Shown one piece after another: positions 25,673-61,268 of a stretch of DNA of 64,000 nucleotides. This DNA is from Heliopora coerulea (taxonomy: Eukaryota > Cnidaria > Anthozoa > Scleralcyonacea > Helioporidae): NCBI GenBank assembly GCA_030142905.1, contig JASJOG010000136.1:1-64000 (forward strand), given 5' to 3'. The notes under the pieces were generated by a model that saw only the letters and a program-made list of their open reading frames with translations, did not search any database and was not told the DNA's origin. Each line of letters starts with the position of its first letter. Positions within the stretch are counted from its first letter, which is position 1. A program made the position numbers and the translations under genes.

Positions 25673-25679
25673 CTTTTAC

Positions 25680-26090: not shown

Positions 26091-26136
<46 letters not shown>
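25680..26136. other. Spacer with (TC)n tract
   Basis: No gene recognised. 26,093-26,131 is a pure (TC)n run directly followed by (TA)n. Confidence 0.7.

Positions 26137-26167
<31 letters not shown>
26132..26167. repeat. (TA)n microsatellite at 3' edge of Penelope element 2
   Basis: Pure TA dinucleotides abutting the end of the PLE sequence and following the (TC)n run. Confidence 0.9.
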
Positions 26168-26171
<4 letters not shown>

Positions 26172-28547: not shown

Positions 28548-28721
28548 CTGAGACCCTATAGTCTTGTGGTAAAACAACCGTACCGGCAATCGGGAGACAC
28601 GGGTTCGATTCCCGTTGGGGAGCTCAGAAATTTTCTGAGATAAAAGCTTGAGGACAAACTTTTCATCATACATATATCCAAGCTTCCAAACATCTACACT
28701 TAGTAAGATGAAATTTATATA

Positions 28722-37014: not shown

Positions 37015-38960
37015 TATGACCCAGTAGTGATCTGGGGTTTAAAGGAATGCAGGAAAGAGGCTTATGCTCAAATAGGGGAGTTCGAGATTTATGAAAGGGT
37101 GGATAATAAATCGGTCAAGGAACTAAATGAGAAAGTCGTTATGAAATTAAAGGATTTAAAAAATAAAGGGGTAATCTCGGATGAAGATCGTGCAAATTGA
37201 AAACCAGAGAAGGAAGCTAAAATTGGTAGATTTTATCTTCCCAAAATCCATGAGAGATTATTAAAAGTACCGGGCAGACCAGTGGTGTCTAATGGTGGAA
37301 CACCTACTGAAAATATTTTAGAATTCTTGGATTTTTATTTACAACCGGTGGTTAAAACGTTACCTTATGTTATGAAAGATACTACCGATTTTTATGTCGA
37401 CTGAAGGAATTGGGTGATTCTAGGACTTGCTCTTATTTGTAGTATGGATGCAGTGGGTCTGTATCCACATATCCCTCATGATGAGCGTTTGGAAAGTATG
37501 AGGTCGGTTTTAAGTGAATATAATAGGAATTGATGGGGGATTGCCAGTGGACGATTTGATAGATTTGGCAGAATTGATTTTAAAAAAGAATTATTTTGAA
37601 TTGAGTTTAAAATCTATCACCAGAAATTGGATACGGCTATAGGCACTAAGTTTGCACCTTCCTTCGCTAATATTTTTATGCCGAAGTAGGAAGAAATAAT
37701 GTTAAGTAAATACCACGTGGATCCTTTGGTCTGGTAACGTTTTTGGATGATGTTTTTCTCATTTGGCTTCATGGGAAGGAGACCTTACTTGAATTTTTGA
37801 ATTTTGTAAATGGTTACCATCCTTGTATTAAGTATACTTGGGAGTGGTCCACGGAGAGGCTTTCTTACTTAGATCTTATGATTTTGGTTAAAGATGAAAG
37901 GATTTTGACAGACGTGTATTCTACGCCAACGGATACACATCAGTATTTGCATTACGGGTCGTGTCACACGACGCATGTTAAGAAGGGAATTCCCTATGGT
38001 CAAGCTCTTAGGATGAAACGTATATGTAGCACGAAAGGAACTTATAATAGGAGAACAGAGATGGTCAGAGGGAATTTGAAAAAAAAGGGTTTTAACAAAA
38101 GTTTTGTTGGTTCCCAACTTAACAAGGCCAAAGGAATCTCCAGGGATAGCCTACTTTGTCAGGAAGAGAGAAAAGGGAAAAAGAGGGATATGACTTCATT
38201 AGTTATGACTTCCATCCAGCGTTATCGGGGGTTGGAAAAATTGTGGATTCACTTTGGCCGATTTTACAGGCGTCGGATAGAACAGCAAAAATATTTAACG
38301 AAAAACCTAGGATAGTGTACCGGAGGCCTAGAAATTTAAAAGAGTTTGGTGAGGACAAGGGTTAGGATGGAAGATATAGGAGATAAAGGAATAAGAAAAT
38401 GTGATAAATCACGCTGCCAGATTGGCAGCTTTGTAGAAGAGGGAAGTGGTTTGGGGGATAGTCGTGGGCATATGTATTATATAAATTACGGTTTTGATTG
38501 CGATTCGGCAGGAGTGATTTACTTATTAACTTGTAAGAGATGTGCAAAAATATACGTGAGGAGTACAGTTACATCCTTTCGAAAGAGGTTTAATAGTTAT
38601 AAAAGTAGCTTGAAACGGTTTGAAAAAGGTCCAAGGGTTATTGTGGGCGAGCATCTGTATGCTGATTTTTATGAAGGACATCAGGAAATTGAAGATATTC
38701 AAGTTAAGATAATAGATTGAACGGATGTAAATGACCCTACGTTTAGAGAAGGCTTTTGGACTTATAAATTAGATACCTTTATTCCGAAAGGTTTGAACCT
38801 TAGGGATTTCTCATAATTTTTTAATTGTAAAAACTGTTTTTGGTATAAATAGGGGCTCCTTACCTTGTAATCTGTATCCTTGATAAAGGGGCAGCTTCCC
38901 GAAACGTTGGAGTTGAGTCAATATAGATTTTAATCTGCGAGGTTTTATGTTTTTAAGATT
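37015..38960 (+). mobile_element. Penelope-like element 4, RT plus GIY-YIG, many stops
   Basis: Plus-strand relative of element 2. The N-terminal part (LNEKVVMKLKDLKNKGVISD) precedes RT blocks: GRFYLPKIHERLLKVPGRPV, CSMDAVGLYPHIPHDERL (catalytic Asp), TAIGTKFAPSFANIFM, FLDDVFLIW and KKGIPYGQALRMKRIC. The nuclease segment (38,370-38,815) has VIYLLTCKRCAKIYVRSTVT, where the usual Gly of YIG is Arg, then RKRFNSYKSS. Stops at 37,198, near 37,403, 37,534 and 37,687, and others, make it a pseudogene. A degenerate hammerhead-like motif follows at 38,879-38,906. Confidence 0.88.
38879..38908 (+). ncRNA. Degenerate hammerhead-like motif in Penelope element 4
   Basis: CTTGATAAAGGGGCAGC then TTCCCGAAACG: stem and GAAAC kept, CUGAUGA changed to UUGAUAA as in element 2. 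Probably a relic of an ancestral ribozyme. Confidence 0.5.
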
Positions 38961-39839: not shown

Positions 39840-40339
39840 TTATTTACCAAGTGAGGTCTGTATGGGAAAATATTTCCCTGGGGGTTTTCGAACAAAACTA
39901 GTAAACTTAGAGGTGAAGTCAGTGCTAAAATTGTTCTGTACAGACCGAACAAACGAGGTTAATAATTCATAGTGTCGATCTTGGTTCCTTCCTTCATCGA
40001 TCTTCACGCTTTTCCTCTTTTTGCCATGTGGCAGTTTGGACTCACCTCTTTTTGCATCTATTCGTGTAGTTTGTGCTCAAAATTTTCCTTAAAAAGGGTT
40101 AATTACATGTCGTTAGCAGTAAGTTAATCTTGTAAAACATACCTGAATCTGGTTGGTTTGTCTTCAAATCATTTCAGAATTTTTCTCATCACAACCTGTC
40201 TGTATGGAAAGGTATTGAACGCTTGGGCAAGAAAAGAGTGCAGTAAACTTAAAATGAGATACTCTGACGTTTTTTTCCCAGAGAGATAAAGAATCTTTGG
40301 CCAAAAATCAACCAGGCTTAAATAATATCGACGACAACA

Positions 40340-41183
40340 ATGGCAGTGAAACTATTCCGCGAAGAAGAGTTAAACTTCTTTAAATTTTCGTCTATCGTCC
40401 TCGATGAATTTCCCAAGGGACTACGTCAGACATTTGAGACGATGTGGAACACCAAGATTGCTGTGTTGCCTGGCTGTCAACTTTGGGATGACTCTCCAGC
40501 TGTTCGCAATATGCTTCTTTGCAGAGAGGGTGGTAAAACAGATATACCGACAAGCAAGTCGATTCAAGACTGGGATTGTACCGCACTATTTAAAGCCACC
40601 ATCTTTGCCAAGACATTTGCTTTGCCAAGTGGCAAGACATTGAATGACAGTTACGTAAAGAAAAAGAAACTAGCGAGTGGCTCATTCCATCCATCGCTGA
40701 ACAGTCCTAGCGGAGATCAAGATGAAACGCTGGCGCTGGCTATTGATCAACTACGACGCCTAAGAAATATACTCTGCCACACAGCTGAACCCAGACTCGA
40801 CAAAGTCACATTTGATCAGTATGCGCAGTTAGCAAAGGATGCATTTGTGGCGTTGAAGCTGAATACCGCTTCTATCGATGCGACTGGAAACCTAGCCGAG
40901 GCTGACTTTCCCACCAACAAATTTTTTGAATTGAGAGAATCCCTACTGAAAGAGGTCCAGGCGAGTAATTTGTTTCTTAGGAAGGAAGTAATTAGCAATC
41001 AGCTAACGAAAACTCAAGAGATAATAGAAGATATTGCTGTCTTAAAGCTCAAAGCAGAAAGAAACGAGGAACTAAATGAACAGCTACTCCAAGAGACAAA
41101 GAAAACCAGAACCGAAGTAATAGATGAAATCAAGTCACAGACCAAAGATGTCAACAGCAACACCGTTAAAAGTACCACATTAG
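40340..41183 (+). CDS. HEPN (DZIP3/hRUL138-like) domain exon, likely first exon of the STAND gene
   Basis: Starts at ATG in a good context (ACAACAATGG) and runs 281 codons plus one base to a GTAAGC donor at 41,184. The frame beyond that is intron. The domain matches the DZIP3-type HEPN: FPKGLRQTFETMWNTK near residues 23-38, IQDWDCTALFKATIFAK near 75-91, and RRLRNILCHTAEP near residue 138, which contains the HEPN R-x4-H motif (RNILCH) of HEPN ribonucleases. After residue 200 a charged helical stretch (LKLKAERNEELNEQLLQETK) looks coiled-coil. The donor is phase 1 (final G) and joins in frame to the phosphorylase-like exon at 47,830. It would also join the decayed NB-ARC exon at 43,193. By analogy it is an effector or oligomerisation module of an immune-type protein; RNase activity is inferred. 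Confidence 0.85.
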
Positions 41184-43192
41184 GTAAGCGTGTAATTGAA
41201 ACTCTTTTTAATTTTTTTCTAGTCGACTTTGGTTTGAAGTTGAACAATTTCGATCTCTTTGTGTGTTCTTGTCTTCGTTTTTCAAAGCCTAGCTCAAACA
41301 ATAAGCGATCATGTTTACTAAGTTAAAATGCGTCATGGTCAAAACTAAAAAAACAAAATCGTATCTAAGTGAGGGTAGGTCTGAGGGATGAACCCCCAAC
41401 ATCGATTTCCTTCACGTAAAACAATACGAAAGCGTATTTAAAATCATGCATGAGAAGGAGTATTTCATCAGGTATTCAAACATTAGATGACAGTCATTTA
41501 ATTGTTGTGTTAATGTCGCAATGCATTGTTTTAAAAATCTTATTCCTATTTCTACGTAGCTCGTGCATGCATTCTTCATGAGGTAATATCAGTGCTATTA
41601 ACAATCTGCCATCATCGCTTGTCTGATCGAGGAGAAGAGACTTGAAATGCAGGCCTCAAGGAGGCGGTTGGATGATATCGAGTGTTGTTTAGAAGGAAGT
41701 GAATAAAGGTTTTTAGCGGATGATGATACACGGATTACGGACATCCACAGAAACGAGGGACTGTAGCCCCCTACAACTAAGTTTTATACCACTTGTTGTG
41801 AAATTTCTCGGGTAGGCATGCAAAATGCTGTAATTTTACCTCAAGCCTCCCCACTCGAAATTTTGCTCCACCGCCCCCGAACTATACAGTTAATTTCCCT
41901 CGGGCTGTACTAACTGGCCCTCATCGGGTAGCAGATTTAACAATTGGTACAGCTCATTTTATGACATTGCGTACAAGTACTTTTCAAAAATATTTCTTCA
42001 GAGTTCGGCTAGCAACTTCTAGTGGTGAAGTTTGATAGAAAGTACGCGAGGCAATTCTCATCGTAAAATATAATTATATGGCGCATGTAAACACATAAAT
42101 TGAGGAGTTAACTTGTCGATTTTATCGAAGATTGCATGCATAACGTGAAGCGTACTTATGGAGAAAAGAAACCGATCATAAGTTGACAGGAAATATTTAC
42201 TCAACGAAGTACCTAATGGCTAAACTACGCACTTTAAACAATTATTAATTGAAGGTATCGTATTTGAAACTATTTAACTCTTGAACCGCCAGCCTGCCAG
42301 GTCGTCCCTTCTTGACTACTAAAATAATCCAACGTTAGCCAAAGTAAAACTATAAAGTTCCTGAATAGCAACGGCTATGAAAGCTTTTCAGAGTTGCGGG
42401 TGTCCGTGTCTTACAAAATGCCTTAAAGAGTGCCACGCCGTTAGATGAACTTCAAAGATAACTTACTACGTTCACAAGGTGCAAGATAACAATTTTAAGA
42501 ACTTTCTTTATTGAAAATAGCACTTTACAATTTATAGAGCTATAGATAGGTTCCAAAATGTCTCCGTCGCTGTTCAGTCATTGCATATGAATGATTTTAC
42601 AAATTAAACCAATATCTAACGCGTTAAGTATGTCCTCATGAGAATGACAAATAGCCGACGCATTTAACCTCGGAGCAGTCATGGTGCATCTGAGGTACGT
42701 TTTTATGCGGCGTAGCCTACTGAAGTAGTGTTAAGCCTCGCTTGACGTGGGTGAACAGACCAACAGCAATCTGCAGAGGGCCTCTACATTCCCATAAAGT
42801 ATTTCCTTTTCATATATAAAACCTTCATCAGTAATGATGAACCAGAATGTGCTTCGCAGCCACAACGTCAATTATCTATTTGACTAAAATATTGTTGGTG
42901 TCCTGCCTATTTTGTACACCCGCTGTCCAGAAATTGCGGGTGTCCGGACATCTGGACACCCGCTGCTTCCAGAGCCCTCGCTAAAAAGCAACTGTGCCTG
43001 GTAAAAGATTAAGTGATGATAATTTCGGGTGGAAATTTCAAAGTTGCTTACATGAAGCATGCATGCATCGGGGAAAAATGCTTTTACATAATTATAATAT
43101 ATTTAAAATACAGTTATATCCAGATAAATATTCGGCATAAATCTATCCGTTTCCAATGAAGCCCAGCTAAGATATATTTTATTTTTTATCAG
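41184..43192. other. Intron after HEPN exon (first part)
   Basis: About 2 kb, no coding signatures. GCGGGTGTCC(G) motifs recur at about 42,396, 42,939 and, inverted, 42,955, hinting at a small repeat. Nothing else recognised. Confidence 0.5.
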
Positions 43193-46100
43193 GTAATCAT
43201 AATTTATTACCCAAGTCGTGCCTTCCACCCATGGTGCCTTACTTTACAGCTCGCGAAACTGAATACAAAGAGATTATTACTTCCATGACGTCTGAGTCGA
43301 CACGACTAGTCAACATTTGGGGGTAACCGGGATTTGGGAAAACGTCCACAGCTATTGCGGTTGGGCATCACCTTCGATCACAAGGAAACCCTGTTTATTT
43401 TTTTACATGTCGAGGGATAAACTCAAAGGACGAATTGATTTCGAAATTTCTCAGTCTCTTTAAGCGTCCCTCGACGTCAACTGTAAATGCAAATTTACCC
43501 CCAGATAACGAGCTCTATAGCATTTTAGGCGAGATTTCTAGTCGCATTTTTGTTATTCTCGATAATCTTGATGATCTTTTTGCTTCTACTGAATCAAATG
43601 ATGACACCACGTCAGTGAAAGATCATGTGTTGCTGTTCATTGTAGAGATTCTCATGCGCAGCCAAAGCGTACGTTTTCTTACTACTGCAAGAGAATCCCT
43701 CCAGTACATAGGTTTAAAATTGGAAGGAATGGAGAGCTTCAGAATAGGGCCCTTAGACCAACTATCCTCTGAAAGTCTAGTGTGCAAATTTCTTCAATCT
43801 GCCACCAAAGATGGTCCACGACAAATATCAAACATTTGTGGAAATGTGCCGCTAGCCATAAAATTGCTGTGTTTTTTAATTATTGAAGATAACCAAACAC
43901 CAAATAAATCTCTTCAAATGCTACTTGAATCTTCAGAGAGTAAACTAAAAATATTAGACAATCCTGATTATCCCTCTGATTTAAGATTACATATCCTCTT
44001 TGAATCTTCTTTTAATCGACTTTCTCAGATAGAACGAGAAGCATTGATTTCTCTGTCGGTATTTATCGGGGCAAATTTTGATTCCAACGCTGCAGCAGCT
44101 GTTATAGGAGGAAGTGAAACGCAAGCGAGACGAACCTTGAGGAATCTTGTGAGAAAATCCTTCATTGATTTAAGTACCGAAAGCAAGACGTATTCTCTCC
44201 ACCCGCTCCTTCGTTCTTCGCGGTTGAAATGGGAAGAAATGAGGAGGGACAAGCCACCCTTCATTCCTCAAGAACTCGGTTCAACGATTATTACATACTT
44301 CGTTTCGGACAACTAAACGAGCTGTTTATAACTGGTGTTTCATTGAGAGCCTTCTCCACTTTTTACCAGGAAAAGCAAAACATCTGGTTAAGTTTTCATG
44401 AGGGTTTTCGGGACGAAATACTCTACGAGAAATTACTTGATGTTCTCGCTAAAGCTGAACTGTTCTTAGCTGCTCTTTACGTACACAATTATTGGAAAAT
44501 CGAATCCCTGTACGATTTAGCATTGAAAACAGCACGTAAACAAGAGAACGATTCTGCTTACTCTAAGCTTGTCGTGAGCAAATATTGGTCTGAAATTCTC
44601 TATTTCAGTACCACAGGAATACCGACAACGCAAAACAGAGAAAGCGAAGAGAAAATTTGCCCGTTATCAGGCGCAATTAAAGCGAAGTATCTGTGCTACC
44701 AAGGTATTCACGCTTTTTCTGACGAAAGGACAGACCACGGTATTCGACTAATTCAGAAAAGTCTTCCTGATTTGAAAGACACCGCTGAACACAAGATTCT
44801 GAAAATTTTGACATCCCAGCTTCTTGCTCTCTATTATAATTTCTTAAAGAATCCAGAGGAATCAATGCAATTTAGTAAAATGTCCTACGAAAATTGCAGA
44901 ACGATTCGGGAATCGAAACTTTTCCTCATCGCTGGATTGGAAGATCCAGTGGCAGAAGCTAAAGAACGAAGACCATGTGACAGTTCCACATTACTAAACC
45001 AGCCGTTAAGTTTCCTGGTAATTTTTCTTCTAAGTGTCTGGGCGACGGAATATTTACCTGTTCAGACGAAGACAAACCTATATAACTTTATCCAAGAACT
45101 AGAAGAGGAAGTAGAGGCAATACTGCCCAGCTGGGACAGTGCCTCAGTTGCAATATTTCATATGCGTGATGTGGCTCTCTTGTATTTACGTAAAACTGAC
45201 GAAGCACCATCGATTCATCAAATAGTTAAGGAAATCGAATTGGCCCTTGAAAGAGATAATCACTCTGTCGACCAGGCTAAAGAAAACAGTGATGAGTCAA
45301 GAAAACTCAGACGTCAGAAATTGTTTCTGGAAAGATTGGCGTGATTTTACCGTTCTGCAGGTGGGTACTACAGGATAAACGAACAACACGGTTTGGTTCT
45401 TCAGTTATTCCAGGAAGAACTAGACGTTAGAATGAAACTTTGTAAAAAACAACATCCTAAAACAACCAGCTGGTACAACGATACTGAATGTGAACAAGAA
45501 AGACTGATCGACTTCACTTCACCTTTTCAGTCATTTCATAATGCACCTGACACCACATTACAATTGTTTGGTGACCAATACCGACGGATAGCTGTCTCCT
45601 ACAACAATATTGGAGTTCAACGAAACAATATGGGAGATTACACTTCAGCTCCGCAGTCCCACCAGCGTGCACTTGACATCAGATTAAAACTATATGGTGA
45701 ACAACATCCATAGACAGCTAACTCCTACCACATTATTGGAGTTGTACAAAAAGACATGGGAGACTACACTTCAGCTCTCCAGTCCCATCACCGTGCACTT
45801 GACATCAGATTAAAACAATATGGTGAACAACATGCACAAACAGCTAACTCCTACCACATTATTGGAGTTGTACAAAAAGACATGGGAGACTACACTTCAG
45901 CTCTCCATTCACTCAATCGTGCACGTGACATCAGAATAAAACTATATGGTGAACAACATGTACAGACAGCTAACTCCTACAAGATTATTGGAGTCGTACA
46001 AAAAGACATGGGAGACTACACTTCAGCTCTCCAGTCCCATCACCGTGCACTTGACATCAGATTAAAACTATATGGTGAACAACATGCACAAACAGCTGAC

Positions 46101-46540
46101 TCCTACCACATTATTGGAGTTGTACAAAAAGACATGGGAGACTACACTTCAGCTCTCCATTCACTCAATCGTGCACGTGACATCAGAATAAAACTATATG
46201 GTGAACAACATGTACAGACAGCTAGTTCCTAGCACAATATTGGAGTAGTAGAAGCCAAATTGGGACACTACATCTCAGCCTTCCAGTCACATCTTGCTCA
46301 TTACATTACATCAAACCTACATGGCGAACAACATGCACAGACAACTACTTTCTAAAACCATGTTGCAGCTGTAAAAAACGATTAAATTGGGTTTTCCAGT
46401 CATATTAACGTGTTCTTGACACCAGGTTAAAACTTTATAGTAAATTACATGCACTGACAGCTCACTCTTAGTACAATATTAGAGAGGTATAATGCAACAT
46501 GAGGTACATTAGGCTTCAATGAGCTTGTAACACCCTTCAC
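43193..46540 (+). pseudogene. Decayed NB-ARC plus TPR exon
   Basis: A second copy of the large STAND exon, entered through TTTTTTATCAG with the same phase 1. The NB-ARC order is kept: LPPMVPYFTARETEYKEI, P-loop PGFGKTSTAIAVGHHL, FVILDNLDDLF (Walker B), CGNVPLAIKLL (GLPL-like), then a winged-helix region and SLHPLLRS. It is dead: a TAA at 43,324-43,326 sits inside the P-loop, a one-base deletion near 44,218 shifts the frame, and TGA at 45,342, TAG at 45,711 and TAG at 46,230 follow. About six TPR units of 42 residues (MGDYTSALQSHHRALDI) are readable to 46,232 and decayed remnants to about 46,540. It lies in the intron between the HEPN and phosphorylase exons. Confidence 0.9.
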
Positions 46541-47169
46541 GTGACCAGTCGTCATGCCCGTCTGTGACTGGTTTAACCATTCTGGAGGGCAAAACAATCT
46601 AAACAAATTTATAATGAAGTTCGATCAAGCGAGTAATTTTGAGGAGAACCGCGATTTTTTAAACGTTGAGGGATGTAAGGAGATTCAAAAGGTAACCATT
46701 CCTACTCAAACCTTTACTATGGCAGAGATTATCAACTATTTTATTGAAGTCAAGGCTGGTAAGAAGGGAAAAACCTAGGACTGTAAGTCGCTTGAAGAGT
46801 CTTCGAATGAATTGTTTGAAGAAGGCTTGTTCGAGTGCTCGAGCGAAATATTGGCTATGAAACAGTTGTTTCAAAATTCCACTGTTTGTCAGAGATGCGA
46901 AAAGACAGTGTGTATAAAGTTATTAGAAGAATTCATTCTTGCGGAGATACTCAGTTCATCAAATTGGTGGAGTTTGAGCTTCTGCTGGTTTGACTTAACA
47001 TATATAGGGGAGTTATTTTGCTTTAATTTCATCGAGCTGTTTCTCAAGGGACTGGATGTAGTTCTCCTCTTTAGTAGATTATCTTCCAATTCATTTTCGC
47101 TCTATTTACTATGCAATCTACAAGCCTTCGAGAGTAGCTGAAGCGTTTAATAAAGTGAAGTGTTAATAA
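46541..47169. other. Unrecognised stretch in the same intron
   Basis: Open frames of 74 and 109 codons on plus (46,554 and 46,812) have no recognisable family. No repeat unit seen. Confidence 0.4.
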
Positions 47170-47693
47170 AAATGAGAGCCCAGCTCAAAATTTTAAGGTG
47201 AAGAACCATGATCACAACAAGGTAAGACAAGTTAAAACATTTTGAAAATAAGTTGGATTCTAACGTTTCGTTGCAACGTGCAACATCTTCAGAGTGTAGT
47301 ATTACAAAGTTATCAATGTCTATATATAAGTCTATTTACATGCGAGAATGAATAATTAATTAGCGCCCAACCAATCACAAAAGGTGACGAACAAGAAGCT
47401 GAGAGAAAAATTAATGACGGAGTGAGAGACTAATGACTCACTCCGTCATTAATTTTTCTCTCAGCTTCTTGTTCGTCACCTTTTGTGATTGGTTGGGCGC
47501 TAATTAATTATTCATTCTCGCATGTAAATAGACTTATATATAGACATTGATAACTTTGCAATACTACACTCTGAAGATGTTGCACGTTGTAACGAAACGT
47601 TAGAATCCAACTTATTTTTAAAATGTTTTAACTTGTCTTGCCTTGTTGTGATCATGGTTCTTCACCTTAAAATTTTGAGCTGGGCTCTCGTTT
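47170..47693. repeat. Large foldback (about 255-bp arms) with a hammerhead core in each arm
   Basis: The two arms are near-perfect complements, from GAGAGCCCAGCTCAAAATTT on the left to AAATTTTGAGCTGGGCTCTC on the right, meeting near 47,431 (CACTCCGTCATTAATTTT on the right arm). The minus strand of the left arm reads CTGAAGA ... GAAAC (47,292-47,275) and the plus strand of the right arm reads CTGAAGA (47,571-47,577) ... GAAAC (47,594-47,598). Both fit CUGANGA-stem-GAAA, and the stem GTTGC/GCAAC (GTAAC on the right) is the same as at 5,050 and 24,652. It lies about 135 bp upstream of the phosphorylase exon. Confidence 0.9.
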
Positions 47694-47829
47694 TTATCCT
47701 GAGACTTGAGAACATATTTCCATCCATCTGTGTGTCTGTCCGTCCATCTGTAATTACTCATTTCATTTTCATTACTTATGATGTTTATTGTAAGACCATC
47801 TTAAGCATATTCATCCACTTCCTTTCCAG

Positions 47830-48534
47830 ATAAAACCACCGCTAAGTCTCTTGGAAACCTTGAGGCAGAACAAAAAGATTTTAAGTGTCCCACAGCTCCA
47901 CAGTTCGACATTATAGATTTCAAAGATATGAAGCCCAGTAACGTTGATTGGTTTGATATCAGCCATGAACCAGTTGATGTTCTTCTACTAACAACCGATG
48001 ATGTCGAGTTTCGTGCTGCATACAAAATATTACGTAACCCCAGAGCAGCAGATGAAGGAAGAAATCTGGGACCACTTTATTTTGGAGAAATTGGACAAAA
48101 TAAAGTTGTCCTTCTCAAATCATCCGAGGTTGCACTTGGTGTTGCTGGAACGCAGGCAACGTGCTCTGATGCCATTCAAAAGCTGAAACCAAAAGTTATT
48201 GTCGGTCTTGGAGTGTGCTTCGGAATGAAAAACGAAAAGCATGATCTGGGTGACGTTCTGGTATCATCCCAGATTGGCTTTTATGGACCTTCTCGTGTAA
48301 ACCCAGATGGCTCCATAAATACCCTTGGTCCAACCATTGAATGCAATCCAAGACTTTCGCGATTGTTTGATGGTGGGAAAGTTGGCTGGGTTGGTCCAGC
48401 GGAAGAAATACTAGTTCCAAAAGTTCACGTCGGTCAAGTTCTAACCGGTCCACAAGATATATCTAACAAACGAAGTAAGGAAGAGTTGAGAAATCGGTTC
48501 CCGGAAGCGTTTGGTGGAGAAAGGGATGGTGAAG
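47830..48534 (+). CDS. Nucleoside-phosphorylase-like domain, exon A of the STAND gene
   Basis: Enters after CTTTCCAG with AT completing a codon from the HEPN exon (G|AT) and leaves phase 1 at GTATGT (48,535). It encodes the N-terminal two thirds of a PNP/UDP-phosphorylase fold: VDVLLLTTDDVEFRAAYKIL (first strand), GVAGTQATCSDAIQKLKPKV, then VIVGLGVCFGM (the GIxxG nucleoside/phosphate loop) and DVLVSSQIGFYGPSRVNPDG. Domains of this fold are known in bacterial and eukaryotic immune proteins, where some act as ATP nucleosidases. Activity here is uncertain: at the splice junction the sequence reads GGERDGEGL where the family usually has GGEMEGxGL, so the ribose-contacting Met-Glu is replaced by Arg-Asp. 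Confidence 0.85.
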
Positions 48535-49473
48535 GTATGTTACAGAATCACAAAGCAGTCTCAGCAATATCTATATCAAACTTTTTCTGGGAGTTCATGT
48601 GCATTTTTTAAAATGATTTTGAAGTTCTCGAGTAAAGGAGGAGTATAAATTCGTTTCCCTAATCTCCATCTCAGGATGCTGTTAAACAAGGTCGACCAGA
48701 GTATGGCCATTAGAAGGAGAGTGATGTGATGGCTCGAGTCCATCTGGGGATCTTGCATGAACAAAGATAACTGTGTCTTCAACGTTCAATTACATCGTTC
48801 ACCTATCGCTGTATTGTCGTGTCGTGTCTTTAATTCTTTCCTGTGCAAGAGGTCTTCCCTTGACAAGTAAAATTGTCTGGGATTAGCCAGTGTAAAATAC
48901 CAAAGTCGGGTATGGAGCTGAAAGAGTCAAAAGTGATAAAAGCACGGTTACCTTTCTCCTCAAATTATTTCAGCTTAGAAAACAACAATTTTCAAACTCC
49001 TTATCGAATTAGCGTAATAAAGGGTTCATTTTCGAAGTTATTTAAAAAGTTCACAGTACGTGCTTTATCGCATCTAAAACACTCGACTATTGTCTCGTGT
49101 TTTAAACACGATAAAGCACTCCTACTCGTTTTTTAAATAGTACATTAATGATTAAAAGTTGGCAATAGTCTTTTTTTTCTGTTGTTTTGTTTCATTGTTG
49201 ATGTTGTTATTCTTGCATTTTTGACATTTTAAATCCCGCTTACACTGTTTGGGAAAAATTTTAGCGAAGGTACCGCTATATTTGGGCAAAGTACGGAGGA
49301 TTTTCACAGTATAAATGGTGCAGACTTCTTAAAATTTCGTATCCGTGCCTGAAAATTTAGCCTTGCCGAGCACTTCTGTTTATGTAGGTCTCGCCGGAGC
49401 TAATTTGCCTCGCCCAAAATTTTACAGTTTTAAAGTTGCTCTTTTCGTCCATTTTATTTATTTTACCAAACAG
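48535..49473. other. Intron between phosphorylase exons
   Basis: Contains a hairpin at about 49,065-49,130 (GTGCTTTATCG ... CGATAAAGCAC around AAACACTCGA...CTCGTGTTT), resembling the foldback at 3.4 kb. No other feature. Confidence 0.6.
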
Positions 49474-49644
49474 GATTATATACACTTTGCCAGAATTCTG
49501 GAATACCCTGGATACTTTGTAAGTCCATTACAAACTGGGCAGACGGCGGGAAATATGAAAGATGGCATACTTTTGGTGCAGCAGTGTCAGCGTCGTATGT
49601 GGAACACGTTTTGGAGAAATTCTACATTCCTGGAGAAATTCAAG
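49474..49644 (+). CDS. Nucleoside-phosphorylase-like domain, exon B (C-terminal part)
   Basis: A 171-nt exon after ACCAAACAG and before GTAAAC, symmetric phase 1-1. It reads GLYTLCQNSGIPWILCKSIT followed by NWADGGKYERWHTFGAAVSA and SYVEHVLEKF. This is the expected end of a PNP fold (GIPW...WADG...A..A..YV). The base-contacting Asp that usually precedes this ADG segment is Asn here (ITNWADG). It is too short and in the wrong frame for Met-initiated ORF calling; I found it by extending the fold across the splice. Confidence 0.82.
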
Positions 49645-50262
49645 GTAAACTATTCACACGAATTTTGGGTGTTATAAAAAATTTAGAGATGTTACGACCA
49701 AACAGGCTTCAACATTGGTTCGTTACCAGGTAACAAAGGGACCAAGACCTCCTTAACCATACAGAACTTCTGATCTTTCTCGGAATAATTGTTCGTGGCC
49801 AATTACTATCACTTCGTTGGAGCTGAATGTTTATACGAGAGAAATAAGCCGAAGGTTTTGTTAAGACGTGGCTTACATAAGCCACGAAATCCTCGTATAA
49901 ACAGGTCAGGAATAATGTTCACGTATTACATAAGCCGCATATCTTAGAAAACGCGGCTTAATTCTTAGGTAACTAAAACATTTCGTGGCTTACGAAATCA
50001 CCCGTTATTTCTCTAGAATCAATGATTCGGTTGGTTTCGACATTCTATACTGCCTACTCAGTTGAAATTATAACTTCAAAACAGGACAGATAATCTTCAA
50101 TTATTTTAATTATGGGAAAAACATCATGAAGAAATCGCCTCTAATGAGATATGTTTAGAAATTTAAAAATTTTCAGGGGAATATTCACCCGGACGCACCT
50201 TGCTGTCCCGATAGATACTGCAATCACCATACGTCATTAACTTGCGACTTCGTGTTCACTAG
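49645..50262. repeat. Intron with small foldback (TTTATACGAG / CTCGTATAAA)
   Basis: Arms at 49,829-49,840 and 49,891-49,902 enclose an inner palindrome CGTGGCTTAC/ATAAGCCACG. Further CGTGGCTTACG and ATAAGCCGC motifs follow to about 50,000. Ends in TTCACTAG, the acceptor for the NB-ARC exon. Confidence 0.6.
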
Positions 50263-53200
50263 GAGAACAGAAACACTTGCCGAAGCCATTCCTCCCTTCT
50301 ATGGTGCCTCACTTCACTGGTCGAAAGAGTGAATGTGACCAAGTTGTTCGCCACATGACTTCCCAATCAACGCGACTGGTGACGATTTCGGGACCACCAG
50401 GATTTGGAAAAACTTCGCTAGCCATTGCAGTGGGACATCGACTGAAATCCCAACGGTTACCTGTTTATTTCTTCTCATTACGAAATGTGAAGACAACGAA
50501 TGACTTAGCATCAAAACTTTTCAACTGTTTCACGCACGCTACATCAAACCAAGCCATTAAGCAACCGTCTTCATCTTCAGGTGTAGTTGACGAGCTTTGT
50601 CGCATTTTCACTCAAATTTCATCCAATGTTTTTATCATTCTTGATAATGCTGATGATTTGCTCGAAAGTGGTGAGCCTGACACAAGACAAGAAATTTCAG
50701 ATCTACTCCAAGAAATCTTCATGCGTTGCAACAACGTCACTTTCTTGTGTACCACAAGAATGAGCCTTGATTTCCTCAAATTAAAGTTTCAACATCACGA
50801 GTCTATGACGATAGGACCATTAGACGAGCCATCCTCGAACCATCTGGTTTATCAGCTCCTTCCCAAAGTCAATGGCGACGACTGCATGAGAATATCACGC
50901 ACCTGTGGACGTGTCCCACTAGCAGTAAAGCTTCTGTGTCCTTTAATTGATGAAGATGACGAGGAGCCTAGCAAAGTCCTTGATGAGTTTTGTAGTTCTT
51001 CCCATAGCTTGCTCGACTTCCTGGATAATCCGGATTCTACAAATGATTTACAATTGAAATTCCTATTTGAATCCGCTTTCAAGAGACTTTCTCAAAAAGA
51101 AAAAGAGGCCTTTGTATCTCTTTCGGTTTTTGTTGGCGAGAAGTTCGACGTGGACGCTGCTGTAAATGTCATTGGTGGAAACAAACGTACAAATAAGCAA
51201 ACTTTGCACAGACTTCAAAGAAAGTGTTTGCTTGATTTTAGCTCTGAGGATAGGTTCTTCTCTTTTCATTCACTTATTAGAGCGTTTGCCGTCGAAAAAG
51301 CAGAAAACGAAATGAAAGAAATTGCTTTTCAAGCTCAACAGCGTTTTCTTTCTTACTACGTTTCGATGTTCAAAGATTTAAATAACCAATTTCAAGATGG
51401 AAATTCACTTTCTGCATTTGTAAAGTGTTATCAGGAAAAAGAAAATATTTTCCCAAGTCTCCTTCAAGGTCTTTCTAACGACACTATATGCGACGAAATA
51501 TTCAAAGTTCTACCAACCGCTGAGCTGTTCCTCGACACAATTACTTACTTTGAAGGATCGACTTTCCATGATATTTACAACTTAGCAATACGAAAGGCAA
51601 AAGAGCGGCGTGACATCGTGTTCACCCATAAGCTAATGGTGGGGCAAGCATTTGCACAGATAACTTGGGGTGAAGGAGGAATAACACATCAGTTGCTTAA
51701 AATGGCTGAAGAAATTGAAGAAGAAAACCCTTCACTCATACCTGAACAAGTAAAAAGAAAACGACTTTGTTATTTAGGTATTTATTTGCTTATCAGCGGA
51801 AGAGCTTGCGAGGGATCTCAAATCCTCGAAGCTGTTGCTCCTCTATTGAGCAATAACAGTGGAGAATGGATCCTCAAATTCCTAGCTTTCCAGATTCTTG
51901 CTTTTTACTTCAAGTTTACCAATGTTCCAGAAAAATCTAAGAAGTTTAACCAATTGGCGTTTAAAGATTGCCATAAGAAAACAGACCAGTATCTTTTTTG
52001 CTTTGACTTTGGCGGAAATATTACTGAGATAGACGAAGTTGTAAGGACAAGAAATGACGATCTCTGCTCTTGTAATCATCCTCTTATTATGGCGCTTATT
52101 TGGCCAATCAGAGAATTTTTAAAAAAGTACCCTTTCAACACCATCCTCGAGAAACTCGTAGATATAATGTTTCAAATGCAAGAAGACATTGAAGCGAAGT
52201 CAAAAAACAACCAGGATTTGCTTCCATTCCTTCGGTACATACATCAAACACTGATAGGATTCGAAAAAAATGAAGATACTTATCTCGCACTACAGCGTAG
52301 TATTAATGTAACAGTGAAGAAATATGGTAAGCTACATGCAGAAACGGCAAACACGTACAGTGTAATTGGAGACGCACAACATAAAATGGGAGACCTCATT
52401 GCAGCTCTACAATCATACCAGCAAGCACATAACATTAGGTTGAAACTATACGGTGAACAACATGCAACAACGGCTGACACTTACCATGAGATTGGAGTCA
52501 CACAACACGAGATGAAAGACTACGTTTCAGCTCTTAAATCCAAGCACCAAGCACTTAACATTAGGTTGAAACTATATGGTGAACAACATGCAACAACGGC
52601 TGACACTTACCATGAGATTGGAGTCACACAACACCAGATGAAAGACTACGTTTCAGCTCTTAAATCCAAGCAACAAGCACTTAATATTAAGTTGAAACTA
52701 TATGGTGAACAACATGCAACAACGGCTGACAGTTACCATTCGATTGGAGTCACACAACACGAGATGAAAGACTACGTTTCAGCTCTTAAATCCAAGCACC
52801 AAGCACTTAACATTAGGTTGAAACTATATGGTGAACAACATGCAACAACGGCTGACACTTACCATTCGATTGGAGTCACACAACACCAGATGAAAGACTA
52901 CGTTTCAGCTCTTAAATCCAAGCAACAAGCACTTAATATTAAGTTGAAACTATATGGTGAACAACATGCAACAACGGCTGACAGTTACCATTCGATTGGA
53001 GGCACACAACACGAGATGAAAGACTACGTTTCAGCTCTTAAATCCAAGCACCAAGCACTTAACATTAGGTTGAAACTATATGGTGAACAACATGCAACAA
53101 CGGCTGACACTTACCATTCGATTGGAGTCGCACAACACCAGATGAAAGACTACGTTTCAGCTCTACAATCATACCAGCAAGCACTTAACATTAGGTTGAA

Positions 53201-55718
53201 ACTATATGGTGAACAACATGCAACAACGGCTGACACTTACCATTCGATTGGAGTCACAAAACACCAGATGAAAGACTACGTTTCAGTTCTACAATCATAC
53301 CAGCAAATACTTAACATTAGGTTGAAACTATATGGTGAACAACATGCAACAACGGCTGACACTTACCATTCGATTGGAGTCACACAACACCAGATGAAAG
53401 ACTACGTTTCAGCTCTTAAATCCAAGCAGCAAGGACTTAACATTAGGTTGAAACTATATGGTGAACAACATGCAACAACGGCTGACACTTACCATTCGAT
53501 TGGAGTCACACAACACCAGATGAAAGACTACGTTTCAGCTCTTAAATCCAAGCAACAAGCACTTAACATTAGGTTGAAACTATATGGTGAACAACATGCA
53601 ACAACGGCTGACACTTACCATTCGATTGGAGTCACACAACACCAGATGAAAGACTACGTTTCAGCTCTCCAATCTTTCCAGCAAGCACTTAACATTAGGT
53701 TGAAACTATATGGTGAACAACATGCAACAACGGCTGACAGTTACCATGAGATTGGAGTCACACAACACGAGATGAAAGACTACGTTTCAGCTCTTAAATC
53801 CAAGCACCAAGCACTTAACATTAGGTTGAAACTATATGGTGAACAACATGCAACAACGGCTGACACTTACCATTCGATTGGAGTCACAAAACACCAGATG
53901 AAAGACTACGTTTCAGCTCTACAATCATACCAGCAAGCACTTAACATTAGGTTGAAACTATATGGTGAACAACATGCAACAACGGCTGACACTTACCATT
54001 CGATTGGAGTCGCACAACACCAGATGAAAGACTACGTTTCAGCTCTACAATCATACCAGCAAGCACTTAACATTAGGTTGAAACTATATGGTGAACAACA
54101 TGCAACAACGGCTGACACTTACCATTCGATTGGAGTCACACAACACCAGATGAAAGACTACGTTTCAGCTCTTCAATCTTTCCAACAAGCACTTAACATT
54201 AGGTTTAAACTATATGGTGAACAACATGCAACAACGGCTGACACTTACCATTCGATTGGAGTCACACAACACCAGATGAAAGACTACGCTTCAGCTCTTA
54301 AATCCAAGCACCAAACACTTAACATTAGGTTGAAACTATATGGTGAACAACATGCAACAACGGCTGACACTTACCATTCGATTGGAGTCACACAACACCA
54401 GATGAAAGACTACGTTTCAGCTCTACAATCATACCAGCAAGCACTTAACATTAGGTTGAAACTATATGGTGAACAACATGCAACAACGGCTGACACTTAC
54501 CATTCGATTGGAGTCACACAACACCAGATGAAAGACTACGCTTCAGCTCTTAAATCCAAGCACCAAGCACTTAATATTAAGTTGAAACTATATGGTGAAC
54601 AACATGCAACAACGGCTGACACTTACCATTCGATTGGAGTCACACAACACGAGATGAAAGACTACGTTTCAGCTCTTAAATCCAAGCACCAAGCACTTAA
54701 CATTAGGTTGAAACTATATGGTGAACAACATGCAACAACGGCTGACACTTACCATGAGATTGGAGTCACACAACACGAGATGAAAGACTACGTTTCAGCT
54801 CTTAAATCCAAGCAGCAAGCACTTAACATTAGGTTGAAACTATATGGTGAACAACATGCAACAACGGCTGACACTTACCATTCGATTGGAGTCACAAAAC
54901 ACCAGATGAAAGACTACGTTTCAGCTCTTAAATCCAAGCACCAAACACTTAACATTAGGTTTAAACTATATGGTGAACAACATGCAACAACGGCTGACAC
55001 TTACCATTCGATTGGAGTCGCACAACACCAGATGAAAGACTACGTTTCAGCTCTACAATCATACCAGCAAGCACTTAACATTAGGTTGAAACTATATGGT
55101 GAACAACATGCAACAACGGCTGACACTTACCATTCGATTGGAGTCACACAACACGAGATGAAAGACTACGTTTCAGCTCTTAAATCCAAGCACCAAGCAC
55201 TTAATATTAAGTTGAAACTATATGGTGAACAACATGCAACAACGGCTGACAGTTACCATTCGATTGGAGTCACACAACACCAGATGAAAGACTACGTTTC
55301 AGCTCTTAAATCCAAGCAGCAAGCACTTAACATTAGGTTGAAACTATATGGTGAACAACATGCAACAACGGCTGACACTTACCATTCGATTGGAGTCACA
55401 CAACACCAGATGAAAGACTACGTTTCAGCTCTTCAATCTTTCCAGCAAGCACTAAACATTAAATTGAAACTATATGGTGAACAACATGCAACAACGGCTG
55501 ACAGTTACCATGAGATTGGAGTCACACAACACGAGATGAAAGACTACGTTTCAGCTCTAAAATCCAAGCACCAAGCACTTAACATTAGGTTGAAACTATA
55601 TGGTGAACAACATGCAACAACGGCTGACACTTACCATTCGATTGGAGTCACACAACACCAGATGAAAGACTACGTTTCAGCTCTTAAATCCAAGCACCAA
55701 GCACTTAACATTAGGTAG
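50263..55718 (+). CDS. NB-ARC STAND ATPase with long TPR array, main exon
   Basis: Begins with GA after the AG at 50,262, completing a phase-1 codon from the phosphorylase exon (G|GA). There is no ATG at the apparent ORF start (it is TTG at 50,277), as expected for an internal exon. NB-ARC runs over about residues 10-330: P-loop GPPGFGKTS (39-47), Walker B VFIILDNADDLLE (about 119-131), CGRVPLAVKLL (GLPL-like) and FHSLIRAFAVEKA (MHD-like, His kept, Met and Asp not). A helical linker of about 350 residues follows. TPRs begin near residue 680: about 26 near-identical 42-residue units (YGEQHATTAD ... MKDYVSALKSK ... ALNIRLKL) up to a TAG at 55,716. With the upstream exons it forms a frame of about 2,391 residues. 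It acts as a nucleotide-switch sensor by family logic; the ligand is unknown. Confidence 0.9.
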
Positions 55719-57640
55719 AAACTATATGGTGAACAACATGCAAAAACGGCTGACAGTTTCCATTCGATTGGAGTCACACAACACCAGATGAAAGACTACG
55801 TTTCAGCTCTTAAATCCAAGCACCAAGCACTTAATATTAAGTTGAAACTATATGGTGAACAACATGCAACAACGGCTGACACTTACCATTCGATTGGAGT
55901 CACACAACACCAGATGAAAGACTACGTTTCAGCTCTTAAATCCAAGCAGCAAGCACTTAATATTAAGTTGAAACTATATGGTGAACAACATGCAACAACG
56001 GCTGACACTTACCATTCGATTGGAGTCACACAACACGAGATGAAAGACTACGTTTCAGCTCTTAAATCCAAGCACCAAGCACTTAACATTAGGTTTAAAC
56101 TATATGGTGAACAACATGCAACAACGGCTGACAGTTAACATTCGATTGGAGTCACACAACACCAGATGAAAGACTACGTTTAAGCTCTACAATCTTTCCA
56201 GCAAGCACTTAACATTAGGTTGAAACTATATGGTGAACAACATGCAGCAACGGCTTACAGTTACCATGAGATTGGAATCACACAACACCAGATGAAAGAC
56301 TAAGTTTCAGCTCTTAAATCCAAGCAGCAAGCACTTAACATTAGGTTGAAACTATATGGTGAACAACATGCAACAACGGCTGACAGTTACCATTCGATTG
56401 GAGTCACACAACACCAGATGAAAGACTACGTTTCAGCTCTTAAATCCAAGCAGCAAGCACTTAACATTAGGTTGAAACTATATGGTGAACAACATGCAAC
56501 AACGGCTGACACTTACCATTCGATTGGAGTCACAAAACACCAGATGAAAGACTACGTTTCAGCTCTTAAATCCAAGCAGCAAGCACTTAACATTAGGTTG
56601 AAACTATATGGTGAACAACATGCAACAACGGCTGACACTTACCATTCGATTGGAGTCGCACAACACCAGATGAAAGACTACGTTTCAGCTCTTCAATCTT
56701 TCCAACAAGCACTTAACATTAGGTTGAAACTATATGGTGAACAACATGCAACAACGGCTGACACTTACCATTCGATTTGAGTCACAAAACGCGAGATGAA
56801 AGACTACGTTTCAGCTCTACAATCTTTCCCGCAAGCACTTAACATTAGGTTGAAACTATATGGTGAACAACATGCAACAACGGCTGACAGTTACCATGAG
56901 ATTGGAGTCACACAACACGAGATGAAAGACTACGTTTCAGCTCTCCAATCTTTCCAGCAAGCACTTAACATTAGGTTGAAACTATATGGTGAACAACATG
57001 CAACAACGGCTAACAGTTACCATTCGATTGGAGTCACACAACACCAGATGAAAGACTACATTTCAGCTCTTAAATCCAAGCAGCAAGCACTTAACATTGG
57101 GTTGAAACTATATGGTGAACAACATGTAACAGCGGCTGATACTTACCATTCGATTGGAGTCCCACAACGCAAGATGAAAGACTACGTTTCAGCTTTTAAA
57201 TCGAAACAGCAAGCACTTAACATTAGGTTTAAACTATATGGTGAACAACATGCAACAACGGCTGACAGATACCATTCGATTGGAGTCACACAACACGAGA
57301 TGAAAGACTACATTTCGGTTCTTCAATCACACCATCGTGCACTAGACCGAAGACTAAAACGTTTTGGTGAACATCCTGGTAAAACAGCAGACAGTTACCA
57401 TAACATAGGTGACATCCAATATGACATGGGAGATTACACTGCTGCTCATCAATCACACCAGCGTGCACTGGACATAAGACTAAAACTTTATGGTGAACAA
57501 CATGATAAAACAGCAGACAGTTACCATAACATAGGTCTCTCACAACGTAACATGAAAGACTACACTGCAGCTCTTCAATCACAACAGCGTGCACTGGACA
57601 TAACCTTGAACCTGTATGGAGGACGACATACATTGGCAGT
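52319..57640 (+). repeat. 126-bp tandem array encoding TPR units
   Basis: About 42 head-to-tail 126-bp units. The first one or two and the last three or four are diverged; the inner ones are near-identical at the DNA level, including synonymous sites. Variation is confined to a few alternating blocks: KSKHQ, KSKQQ, QSYQQ or QSFQQ at one site, and TQHQ, TQHE, AQHQ or TKHQ at another. There is no frameshift over the whole array. Such uniformity points to recent expansion or gene conversion. Confidence 0.95.
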
Positions 57641-57746
57641 CAATAGTTACCGTGAGATTGGGATCGTAAAACAGTTGAGCACCACAGTATGTGTGGCAAA
57701 AGTCATCAAGTTAGTACCATCATTCATTATTTGTTTATTCATTTGA
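55719..57746 (+). pseudogene. TPR array continuation behind nonsense codons
   Basis: The same frame continues with TPR units but is interrupted at 55,716 (TAG), 56,136 (TAA), 56,181 (TAA), 56,301 (TAA) and 56,778 (TGA). Each is a single-base change from the consensus unit. The last units (57,310-57,640: MGDYTAAHQSHQRALDIRL) are diverged and resemble the units of the decayed copy at 45.5-46.2 kb, so they look like the old C-terminal edge of the array. A possible donor GTATGT lies at 57,687. Either the protein is truncated after about 26 repeats, or these stops are allele- or assembly-specific. Confidence 0.75.
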
Positions 57747-59926: not shown

Positions 59927-61268
59927 GAGGGTCATCCAAAAAGTAACGCCTGTTGTACAAGATCAGAGAAATTTTATTGTTTACATACACAAACTACATA
60001 TGAAAATGACCGGAAATATGTCAGGAACACAACCCTATCCCTCAATATAGTCTCCTCTATTGTCCACTGCTGCTGTCCAGCGCTGTATCAGAGCCTCTAT
60101 TCCTGCCTCGTAAAAGGAGGATGTTGTGAGCGGAGCCAAGACCGAACAGCTGTCATAACCTCTCCATCAGTCGAGAATCGCTGACCACGCAGTGCTTCCT
60201 TCATCGGTCCAAACAAATGGAAGTCTGATGGAGCCAAATCAGGGCTGTACGGTGGATGGGGCAGCGTGGTCCACCCATGGCGGGTGATTTCCTGTCTGGT
60301 TCGCAAACTTGTGTGGGGACGGGCATTATCGTGCTGAAGGAGGACACCATCCATGTTGAGATTGGGTCGGCAACGCCGAAGTCTGTTTTTCAGTTTGTTT
60401 AGAGTCGCAATGTAGGTGTCAGAGTTTATGGTAGTGCCTTTGGGCATAAAGTCAACCAATATCACACCCTGATAATCCCAAAAGACTGTAGCCATCACCT
60501 TGCCAGCGGACGGCTGCGACTTGAATGTTTTCTTTCTTGGTGAGTAAGAATGTCGCCATTCCATCGACCTTCTTTTGCTTTCTGGCTCGTAATGATGAAC
60601 CCAGGTTTCATCCCCAGTGACAATTCTTTTCAAAAATGTGTTATCATCACTATGAAGCCGCAGAAGCTCAGTGGATGCCTCAACTCGTTGCTCCTTCATG
60701 GCATCTGTCAGCTGCCGTGGAACCCACTCTGCACAGACCTTGCTGTAGCCCAATTTACTGACCAAATTGCCTGCACTACTTCTACTGATGTCTAGTGGCT
60801 CACTTATCTCAGTAATTGTAATCCTCCTGTTTTCTTTGATCAACTCATCAGTGCTTTTCAAGTTCATGTCTGACACTGCATGAGCAGGCCTTCCACTTCT
60901 TGGCTGGTCAGTCAGCACAGCCTCACCTTTGGCTGTTTCACCACCTTTAATCCTGCTTGCCCATCTTCTCACATTGCTCACATCAAGAGTGTGATCCCCA
61001 TACACATTTTTCAGTCTTTTGTGGATGGCTGCAGCACTTTCTCCCTCCAAAACCAAGAATTCTATCACAGCTCTTTGTTTTTTACATATTTCAGCATGGG
61101 CGGCCATCTTGGAAATGGAATTCTGGGAATGGAGGGAGCACACAACTCCAAATTCATGATCACAATGAAGTAAACTTATGGTTGAATATGTTTTTCAAAT
61201 TTGAAACAAATCCACCTAAACCTGGAGAAATTATGGCTTAGCAGGCATTACTTTTTGGATGACCCTCG
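59926..61268 (-). mobile_element. Mariner transposon with TIRs and TA target duplication
   Basis: Ends CGAGGGTCATCCAAAAAG at 59,926 and its complement ending at 61,268; the TIRs match over about 27 bp with one mismatch. TA lies on each side (59,924-59,925 and 61,269-61,270). It is 1,343 bp and sits inside a (TA)n tract. It carries one transposase gene on the minus strand. Confidence 0.95.
60097..61143 (-). pseudogene. Mariner transposase (DD34D), frameshift near C-terminus
   Basis: 348 codons from the first Met; a Met at residue 13 (MAAHAEICKKQRAVIEFLVL) is the likelier start. There is an N-terminal helix-turn-helix (AAAIHKRLKNVYG), the linker region (KENRRITITEISE), and the catalytic triad in VTGDETWVHHYEP, QHDNARPH and YSPDLAPSD, with 34 residues between the second and third Asp. 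Near 60,113 a T run is one base short, so the frame stops at 60,097. The conserved mariner C-terminus (GIEALIQRW) is readable in the next frame for about 24 residues. Apart from that, the gene is intact, suggesting recent activity. Confidence 0.92.

What the first reader, a model, noticed from the sequence alone, without database searches (positions are those of the whole stretch)
40340..57746. Candidate immune sensor fusing HEPN, phosphorylase-like, NB-ARC and TPR modules
Four exons (40,340-41,183; 47,830-48,534; 49,474-49,644; 50,263 onward) all meet in phase 1 and give one uninterrupted frame to 55,718. Each domain is recognisable by motif (RNILCH in HEPN; GLGVCFGM and NWADG in the PNP fold; GPPGFGKTS and ILDNADDL in NB-ARC; 42-residue TPRs). 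HEPN RNases and PNP-fold ATP nucleosidases are each known effectors in NLR-like or antiviral systems. Having both ahead of one NB-ARC-TPR sensor would be a two-effector architecture.
Basis: partly seen in the sequence, partly recalled or inferred. Interest (0 to 1): 0.85.

Follow-up and report, generated by a model that had tools for sequence, protein, structure and literature searches.

The report
Two neighbouring coral immune-receptor genes
The stretch read as one giant coral immune sensor is most likely two neighbouring genes, a broken receptor with an RNA-cutting-type front end and a receptor with a nucleoside-cleaving-type front end, although a gene with both front ends in one reading frame does seem to exist elsewhere in the same genome.

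Summary
The four exons, GT-AG sites, phase-1 joins and open frame to 55,718 are real, and the modules are mostly named correctly (the NTPase scores best as NACHT). The HEPN-to-PNP join in this window is probably wrong. 'Intron 1' contains a second, decayed NACHT-TPR exon (43,193 onward). The HEPN exon joins it in phase, with a stop in the P-loop. HEPN exon, intron and start of that exon match an intact HEPN-NACHT-TPR gene on the same contig as one 92% block, and the block's far end (to 47,145) matches 4 of 4 such units at 92-95%. Then comes a 532-bp palindromic repeat (47,166-47,697). From about 47,703 the DNA matches a different family: 14 of 14 PNP genes on contig C174 have another first exon (83 aa) and no intact HEPN exon; the window copy has lost that first exon. 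So the window holds a HEPN-NACHT-TPR pseudogene followed by a 5'-truncated PNP-NACHT-TPR gene; related kinds are known in corals. Elsewhere, contig C750 carries HEPN, PNP and NACHT-TPR exons in one phase-1 series (introns 500, 1,334 and 1,535 bp) with no rival exon. Its HEPN has lost the catalytic histidine (RNTLCN). None of 216 retrieved public proteins matches both HEPN and PNP.

The parts
40340..41183 (+). HEPN (DZIP3-like) plus coiled-coil exon, 281 aa, Rx4H motif RNILCH; first exon of gene A
   Evidence: open, phase-1 donor; Pfam HEPN_DZIP3 sub-threshold, E 0.0011; R142, N143 and H147 invariant in 7 of 7 aligned proteins; 81-91% to HEPN exons of four C42 genes
41184..43192 (+). intron of gene A between HEPN and NACHT-A exons
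   Evidence: 94.6% identical (gap columns left out) to the matching intron of the C42:879,886 gene, as is the HEPN exon (95.1%, with 51 gap columns); acceptor at 43,193
43193..46347 (+). decayed NACHT-TPR exon of gene A: stop in the P-loop, a frameshift near 44,226, further stops at 45,344, 45,713 and 46,232; TPR array 45,596-46,347
   Evidence: residues 1-300 are 91-92% identical to NACHT of four C42 genes, 46% to gene B
39977..47145 (+). gene A unit, a segmental copy of the C42 HEPN-NACHT-TPR gene (pieces of an upstream flank, 35,096-36,945, match too)
   Evidence: 92% over 39,977-43,270 to one unit (L039); 92-95% to 4 of 4 C42 units up to 47,145, from 46,233-46,274 on; 43,327-44,226 at protein level; 44,227-46,232 was not compared as DNA
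47166..47697 (.). 532-bp palindrome, an interspersed repeat at the junction of units A and B
   Evidence: 97% identical to its own reverse complement; tens of further places in the genome (40 of 1,189 candidates scored)
47830..48534 (+). PNP exon 1 of gene B (nucleosidase/phosphorylase fold)
   Evidence: PNP_UDP_1 E 5.3e-13 together with exon 2; nearest solved chains are MTA/SAH nucleosidases; dN/dS 0.20-0.46 against nine C174 copies
49474..49644 (+). PNP exon 2 of gene B (NWADG)
50263..55718 (+). NACHT (STAND NTPase) plus TPR exon of gene B, inside an open frame of 1,825 aa
   Evidence: NACHT 40.6 bits; 91-97% to 15 C174 copies
55719..57746 (+). continuation of the TPR array in the same frame behind in-frame stops

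Best explanation
The interval is two tandem-array NLR-like genes on the same strand. Gene A (39,977-47,145) is a HEPN-NACHT-TPR gene, a recent copy of the C42:824-912 kb family, now a pseudogene. Gene B (about 47,703-57,746) is a PNP-NACHT-TPR gene of the C174 family whose own first exon is missing, next to a breakpoint that carries a palindromic repeat. Shown by computation: the exon content, the shared duplication blocks, the decay of A, the absence of the C174-type first exon from B. Suggested: constraint on the PNP exon in this family (pairwise dN/dS). Inferred: in intact relatives the TPR superhelix binds a microbial or damage ligand, the NACHT ATPase oligomerises, and the clustered N-terminal domain becomes active. 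In the PNP type this would cleave the N-glycosidic bond of a purine nucleotide such as ATP and starve the cell; in the HEPN type it would cut RNA. Gene B may start inside its PNP exon (an ATG precedes the PNP core) or may now borrow an upstream exon, the HEPN exon included.
For:: L039 6,522-9,900 aligns to window 39,977-43,270 at 92% across HEPN exon, intron and NACHT-A exon start; exon 95.1% and intron 94.6% identity, so the unit was copied as a block. NACHT-A 91-92% to four C42 genes with open frames, 46% to gene B; 4 of 4 C42 units match up to 47,145, where the palindrome follows; the match of B to C174 units starts at 47,703 or 47,713 in 7 of 9 units; in the other two the main match starts at 47,801 and a second piece of about 85% lies upstream of it; 14 of 14 C174 PNP exons 1 have the MDEL first exon upstream; no MDEL match lies in the window, and no full HEPN exon on C174; the HEPN donor joins acceptor 43,193 in phase and the read meets a stop in the P-loop; dN/dS for PNP exon 1 0.20-0.46; for the HEPN exon 0.82 (few changes: 31.5 non-synonymous, 10.5 synonymous).
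Against: Splicing from HEPN over the dead exon into PNP is in phase and would give gene B a first exon; nothing here excludes it. At C750 the same exon order is a plausible single gene. No RNA evidence was available for any of these loci. Apart from the 47,703 block, a piece of the palindromic repeat of about 116 bp (from 47,262) also occurs upstream of 5 of 9 C174 units, so the repeat was near some of these genes anyway.
Confidence: 0.85

Rival explanations
1. One four-exon gene: HEPN-PNP-NACHT-TPR with the decayed NACHT-TPR copy spliced out inside intron 1, either by descent or by recent exon capture after gene B lost its first exon.
For:: clean frame and splice sites; gene B lacks the C174-type first exon, so it may need one; the order HEPN-PNP-NACHT-TPR exists at C750.
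Against:: the HEPN exon belongs to the duplicated gene A block; a nearer acceptor, shared with the C42 gene in L039, is available. HEPN exon dN/dS 0.82 against L039, no sign of constraint, though on few changes; 0 of 216 retrieved proteins combine HEPN and PNP.
Confidence: 0.1
2. Both genes are dead: gene B is also a pseudogene, since it has no known first exon and has stops in its TPR array.
For:: first exon missing; five in-frame stops between 55,716 and 56,778.
Against:: 1,825-aa open NACHT-TPR frame; low dN/dS in PNP exon 1, though the pairwise ratios include the history of the C174 copies and do not exclude a recent death. The open NACHT-TPR frames of the C174 relatives range from 847 to 1,939 aa, so an early stop in the array may be tolerated.
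Confidence: 0.25

Closest known systems
HEPN_DZIP3-NACHT (TPR) proteins of cnidarians and molluscs (PMC3710099, PMC8260672, PMC10236652, PMC9646362; passages seen)
   Same: Gene A and its C42, C287 and C748 relatives have an N-terminal HEPN exon, then NACHT; TPR follows in gene A; 19 of 216 retrieved proteins match both HEPN and NACHT
   Different: Gene A itself is decayed
PNP_UDP_1 domains of fungal NLRs and the bacterial ATP-nucleosidase effectors (passages in PMC10197012 and PMC11249213)
   Same: PNP-fold domain N-terminal to a STAND NTPase with repeats; 5 of 216 retrieved proteins match PNP and NACHT; PADLOC 'Effector, PN-superfamily' E 4.7e-10
   Different: Nearest solved relatives by sequence are MTA/SAH nucleosidases; substrate unknown
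OTU-PNP-NACHT-LRR protein of Porites lobata (P0141)
   Same: A coral NLR with two enzyme-type N-terminal domains, one of them PNP
   Different: OTU in place of HEPN, LRR in place of TPR; 29% identical to the C750 PNP
HEPN-PNP-NACHT-TPR candidate at C750, from 1,285,404 on, in the same genome (L037)
   Different: HEPN histidine replaced (RNTLCN); no intervening second NACHT exon

Membership tests
NLR-like STAND NTPase with repeats | NACHT or NB-ARC NTPase with Walker A and B, C-terminal repeats | tested here: met
   Gene B: NACHT 40.6 bits over cut-off 26.7, TPR_12 27 stretches; GPPGFGKTS and ILDNADDL
NB-ARC subclass | Pfam NB-ARC over its cut-off | tested here: inconclusive
   Gene B 14.7 bits under cut-off 23.5; relatives P0012, P0014 and P0020 score over the cut-off for both NB-ARC and NACHT
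HEPN_DZIP3 | Pfam model over cut-off | tested here: not met
   19.2 bits against 27. Of five relatives with this domain that were scanned (P0001, P0003-P0006), one reaches the cut-off (P0004, 29.5) and four show no HEPN hit at E 0.001
HEPN_DZIP3 | Rx4-6H catalytic motif | tested here: met
   RNILCH; R142, N143, H147 invariant in 7 of 7 sequences of alignment A1; lost at C750
HEPN_DZIP3 | HEPN helical fold | tested here: inconclusive
PNP/UDP phosphorylase-nucleosidase superfamily | Pfam PNP_UDP_1 over cut-off | tested here: met
   49.4 bits against 25.1, E 5.3e-13
Immune ATP nucleosidase | cleaves ATP to adenine and ribose-5'-triphosphate | not testable with these tools
   Only fold-family membership was tested
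Two-effector HEPN-PNP-NACHT-TPR gene (this window) | HEPN exon belongs to the same gene as the PNP exons | tested here: not met
   By homology of DNA blocks: HEPN exon, intron and NACHT-A exon start are one duplicated block. Transcripts not tested
Two-effector HEPN-PNP-NACHT-TPR gene (C750) | in-phase consecutive exons with no competing exon | tested here: met
   Only the first 62 bases of the NACHT-TPR exon were read; its open frame of 1,652 aa is from the search row. Transcripts not tested

The most novel reading that the evidence does not exclude
This genome encodes at least one true two-front-end NLR, HEPN-PNP-NACHT-TPR, at C750, where the HEPN half has lost its catalytic histidine and may serve as a binding or gating domain for the PNP nucleosidase. 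In the window the same combination may be arising a second time, as a truncated PNP-NACHT-TPR gene captures the still-open, Rx4H-bearing HEPN exon of its dead neighbour by skipping the dead exon. If so, tandem NLR arrays in corals build new effector combinations by phase-1 exon swapping across breakpoints.
Probability: 0.5. Interest if true: 0.6.

Novelty: new member of a known kind. Interest (0 to 1): 0.38.

Why it matters
It shows how a clean spliced frame can mislead when the exons of an expanding family share one intron phase, and it gives a sharp picture of birth and death in coral NLR arrays: block duplication, decay, a repeat at the breakpoint, a missing first exon. The C750 gene, if transcribed, would be an NLR with two N-terminal enzyme-type domains in series. 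I found no such HEPN-PNP pairing among 216 retrieved proteins, nor in the listings and passages that I saw; most listed papers were not opened, and supplementary domain tables could not be read.

Tried and rejected
Considered: HEPN exon as first exon of gene B (set aside because of the duplicated block). HEPN fold confirmation by structure: Foldseek gave nothing at E <= 0.001 and the second look was inconclusive; no HEPN chain other than the two Csm6 rows caught my eye there. Second structure job (P0014, PNP-NACHT): most of the PNP part has pLDDT under 50, so no fold search was run with it. dN/dS for NACHT against the copy at C174:133,798 was misaligned because of an in-frame stop; that row and the C174 pairwise NACHT mean were dropped, leaving 8 of 9 rows (0.37-0.71). 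PNP exon 1 of B against C750 and the synonymous rate of HEPN C42 against C750 gave no value (a wrong offset on my side in the first case, saturation in the second) and were not repeated. Rfam: one tRNA match at 28,554-28,620, 29.1 bits against 29, not found by ARAGORN. Literature on immune ATP nucleosidases: the primary paper did not appear among the 14 papers found; passages of reviews only.
Full report
The observation. The four exons, their GT-AG borders, phase-1 joins and the open frame to 55,718 are as stated. Pfam gives PNP_UDP_1 (E 5.3e-13), NACHT (3.1e-10) and TPR above cut-off, and NB-ARC and HEPN_DZIP3 below their cut-offs. The HEPN label rests on a sub-threshold Pfam hit, an RNILCH (Rx4H) motif whose R, N and H are invariant in 7 of 7 aligned sequences, one of five scanned relatives over the cut-off (P0004) and an all-helical model; fold comparison was inconclusive. 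The window is the start of contig C42 of a 430-Mb genome. A stony coral is my inference, from the coral proteins among the nearest matches.

Between the HEPN exon and the first PNP exon lies a second NACHT-TPR exon (43,193-46,347). It carries a stop in the P-loop, a frameshift and more stops. The HEPN exon joins its acceptor at 43,193 in phase. In the gene at C42:879,886 (L039) the HEPN donor has the same phase and the sequence GTAAGCG, and the acceptor is the same.

Which gene owns the HEPN exon. A genome search with the HEPN exon returned 26 matches, the window's own included, from 30 candidates. The four closest others, at 81-91%, are at C42:824,753, 847,065, 879,886 and 900,398. Each ends about 2.05 kb upstream of a NACHT match (827,700, 850,014, 882,834, 903,288); the window spacing is 2.02 kb. 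DNA around C42:879,886 aligns with window 39,977-43,270 at 92%: exon 95.1%, intron 94.6%, gap columns left out. NACHT-A is 91-92% identical to the four C42 genes and 46% to gene B. The DNA at the end of the TPR array and after it matches all four C42 units at 92-95% up to 47,145. HEPN exon and NACHT-A exon therefore came as one block. HEPN dN/dS against L039 is 0.82, no sign of constraint, on few changes.

Which gene owns the PNP exons. Contig C174 carries 15 NACHT copies at 91-97%. Fourteen have a PNP exon 1 on the contig; the fifteenth is cut by the contig start. In 14 of 14 a short exon (MDELSGQTS..., 83 aa) lies 1.4 to 5.2 kb upstream of the PNP exon; it is shorter or split in two of them. 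A phase-1 donor was checked in one copy. No full HEPN exon was found on C174, only five fragments with stops. I held 200 of the 431 kb of C174; the rest is known from search positions only. Window DNA matches these units from 47,703 or 47,713 in 7 of the 9 units compared; in the other two the main match starts at 47,801 and a second piece of about 85% lies upstream; a piece of the palindromic repeat of about 116 bp also occurs upstream of 5 of the 9. The MDEL exon was not found in the window. Between the two blocks sits a 532-bp palindrome (47,166-47,697, 97% identical to its reverse complement), a repeat with tens of other places in the genome. The window's gene B is thus a C174-type gene whose first exon is missing at this junction. 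Its PNP exon 1 shows dN/dS 0.20-0.46 against nine C174 copies; these pairwise values speak for the family rather than for gene B alone.

Census of the family in this genome (the searches score capped lists, so counts are lower bounds and absences are provisional; PNP: 134 of 364 candidates scored). MDEL-PNP-NACHT: 14 on C174. PNP-NACHT without a HEPN match: 9 on C77 and 1 on C37, some broken. HEPN-NACHT without a PNP match: 4 on C42, 3 on C287 (where only about 340 bp separate HEPN and NACHT matches), 1 on C748 (a gap of about 6.7 kb that I could not read), plus gene A. HEPN-PNP-NACHT: 1, on C750. Plus gene B.

The C750 gene. In L037 the HEPN exon (54% to the window's, 62% to that of C287) ends in a phase-1 donor. 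PNP exon 1 (73%) and exon 2 (78%) follow, then the NACHT exon (72% to gene B, open frame of 1,652 aa), all phase 1, with introns of 500, 1,334 and 1,535 bp and no second NACHT exon, and no gap letters. I read only the first 62 bases of that NACHT-TPR exon. Its HEPN reads RNTLCN, with the histidine gone, so its RNase activity is doubtful. Three protein searches brought 216 proteins: 19 match HEPN and NACHT, 5 PNP and NACHT, 7 HEPN alone, 4 PNP alone, none HEPN and PNP (BLASTP E <= 1e-5). Each search scored only about 8,000 candidates and the public coral gene sets are incomplete, so this is weak evidence of rarity. A Porites lobata protein has OTU-PNP-NACHT-LRR, so pairing PNP with another enzyme-type domain has a precedent.

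Mechanism. Inferred from family knowledge: TPR as ligand sensor, NACHT as ATP-driven oligomerisation switch, N-terminal domain as effector. PNP-fold domains are reported as ATP nucleosidases in bacterial defence and as frequent NLR domains in fungi (passages in PMC11249213 and PMC10197012). DZIP3-type HEPN fused to NACHT and to TPR is listed for animals (passage in PMC3710099) and is the commonest NACHT partner, leucine-rich repeats excluded, in several cnidarians, corals among them (passage in PMC8260672). In PADLOC the PNP domain matches an unnamed candidate family best (PDC-M60C, 4.4e-13) and then a PN-superfamily effector (4.7e-10). The nearest solved chains are MTA/SAH nucleosidases (E 5.8e-8). 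The substrate is unknown.

Verdict. The reading is partly supported: sound modules, a probably wrong join in this window, and a plausible example of the proposed architecture elsewhere in the genome that deserves transcript proof.

Noticed in passing
C750 from 1,285,404 on (L037 4,404-9,500): HEPN, two PNP exons and the start of NACHT-TPR in one phase-1 series with no rival exon; HEPN motif RNTLCN lacks the histidine.
   Followed up: partly
C174 at 27,974; 71,470; 229,970; 252,713; 305,062: Five HEPN fragments (residues 8-59, 52-65% identical, 1-2 stops each). The first two lie downstream of a TPR frame; the others seem to, going by the open frames. Possible relics of HEPN exons once near these PNP genes.
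   Followed up: no
window 47,166-47,697: Near-perfect 532-bp palindrome, an interspersed repeat at the junction of two gene families; arms of about 268 bp recur at tens of places.
   Followed up: partly
window 52,419-57,328: 39 TPR units of 126 bp at 93% match; open NACHT-TPR frames vary greatly among paralogues, pointing to ongoing repeat turnover.
   Followed up: no
C42:74,757-75,392 (outside the window): Another PNP exon match (50%) about 17 kb beyond gene B.
   Followed up: no
window 7,564-8,835 and 18,668-19,870 (+): Two related long open frames that look like flavin amine oxidases (label recalled, no search run).
   Followed up: no
window 21,536-23,708, 24,779-27,593, 30,701-32,531, 37,710-38,720, 60,097-61,194: Open frames that look like LINE, Penelope-like, hAT and mariner transposable elements (labels recalled, no search run).
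   Followed up: no
P0141 (Porites lobata): OTU-PNP-NACHT-LRR protein: another coral NLR with two enzyme-type N-terminal domains.
   Followed up: partly
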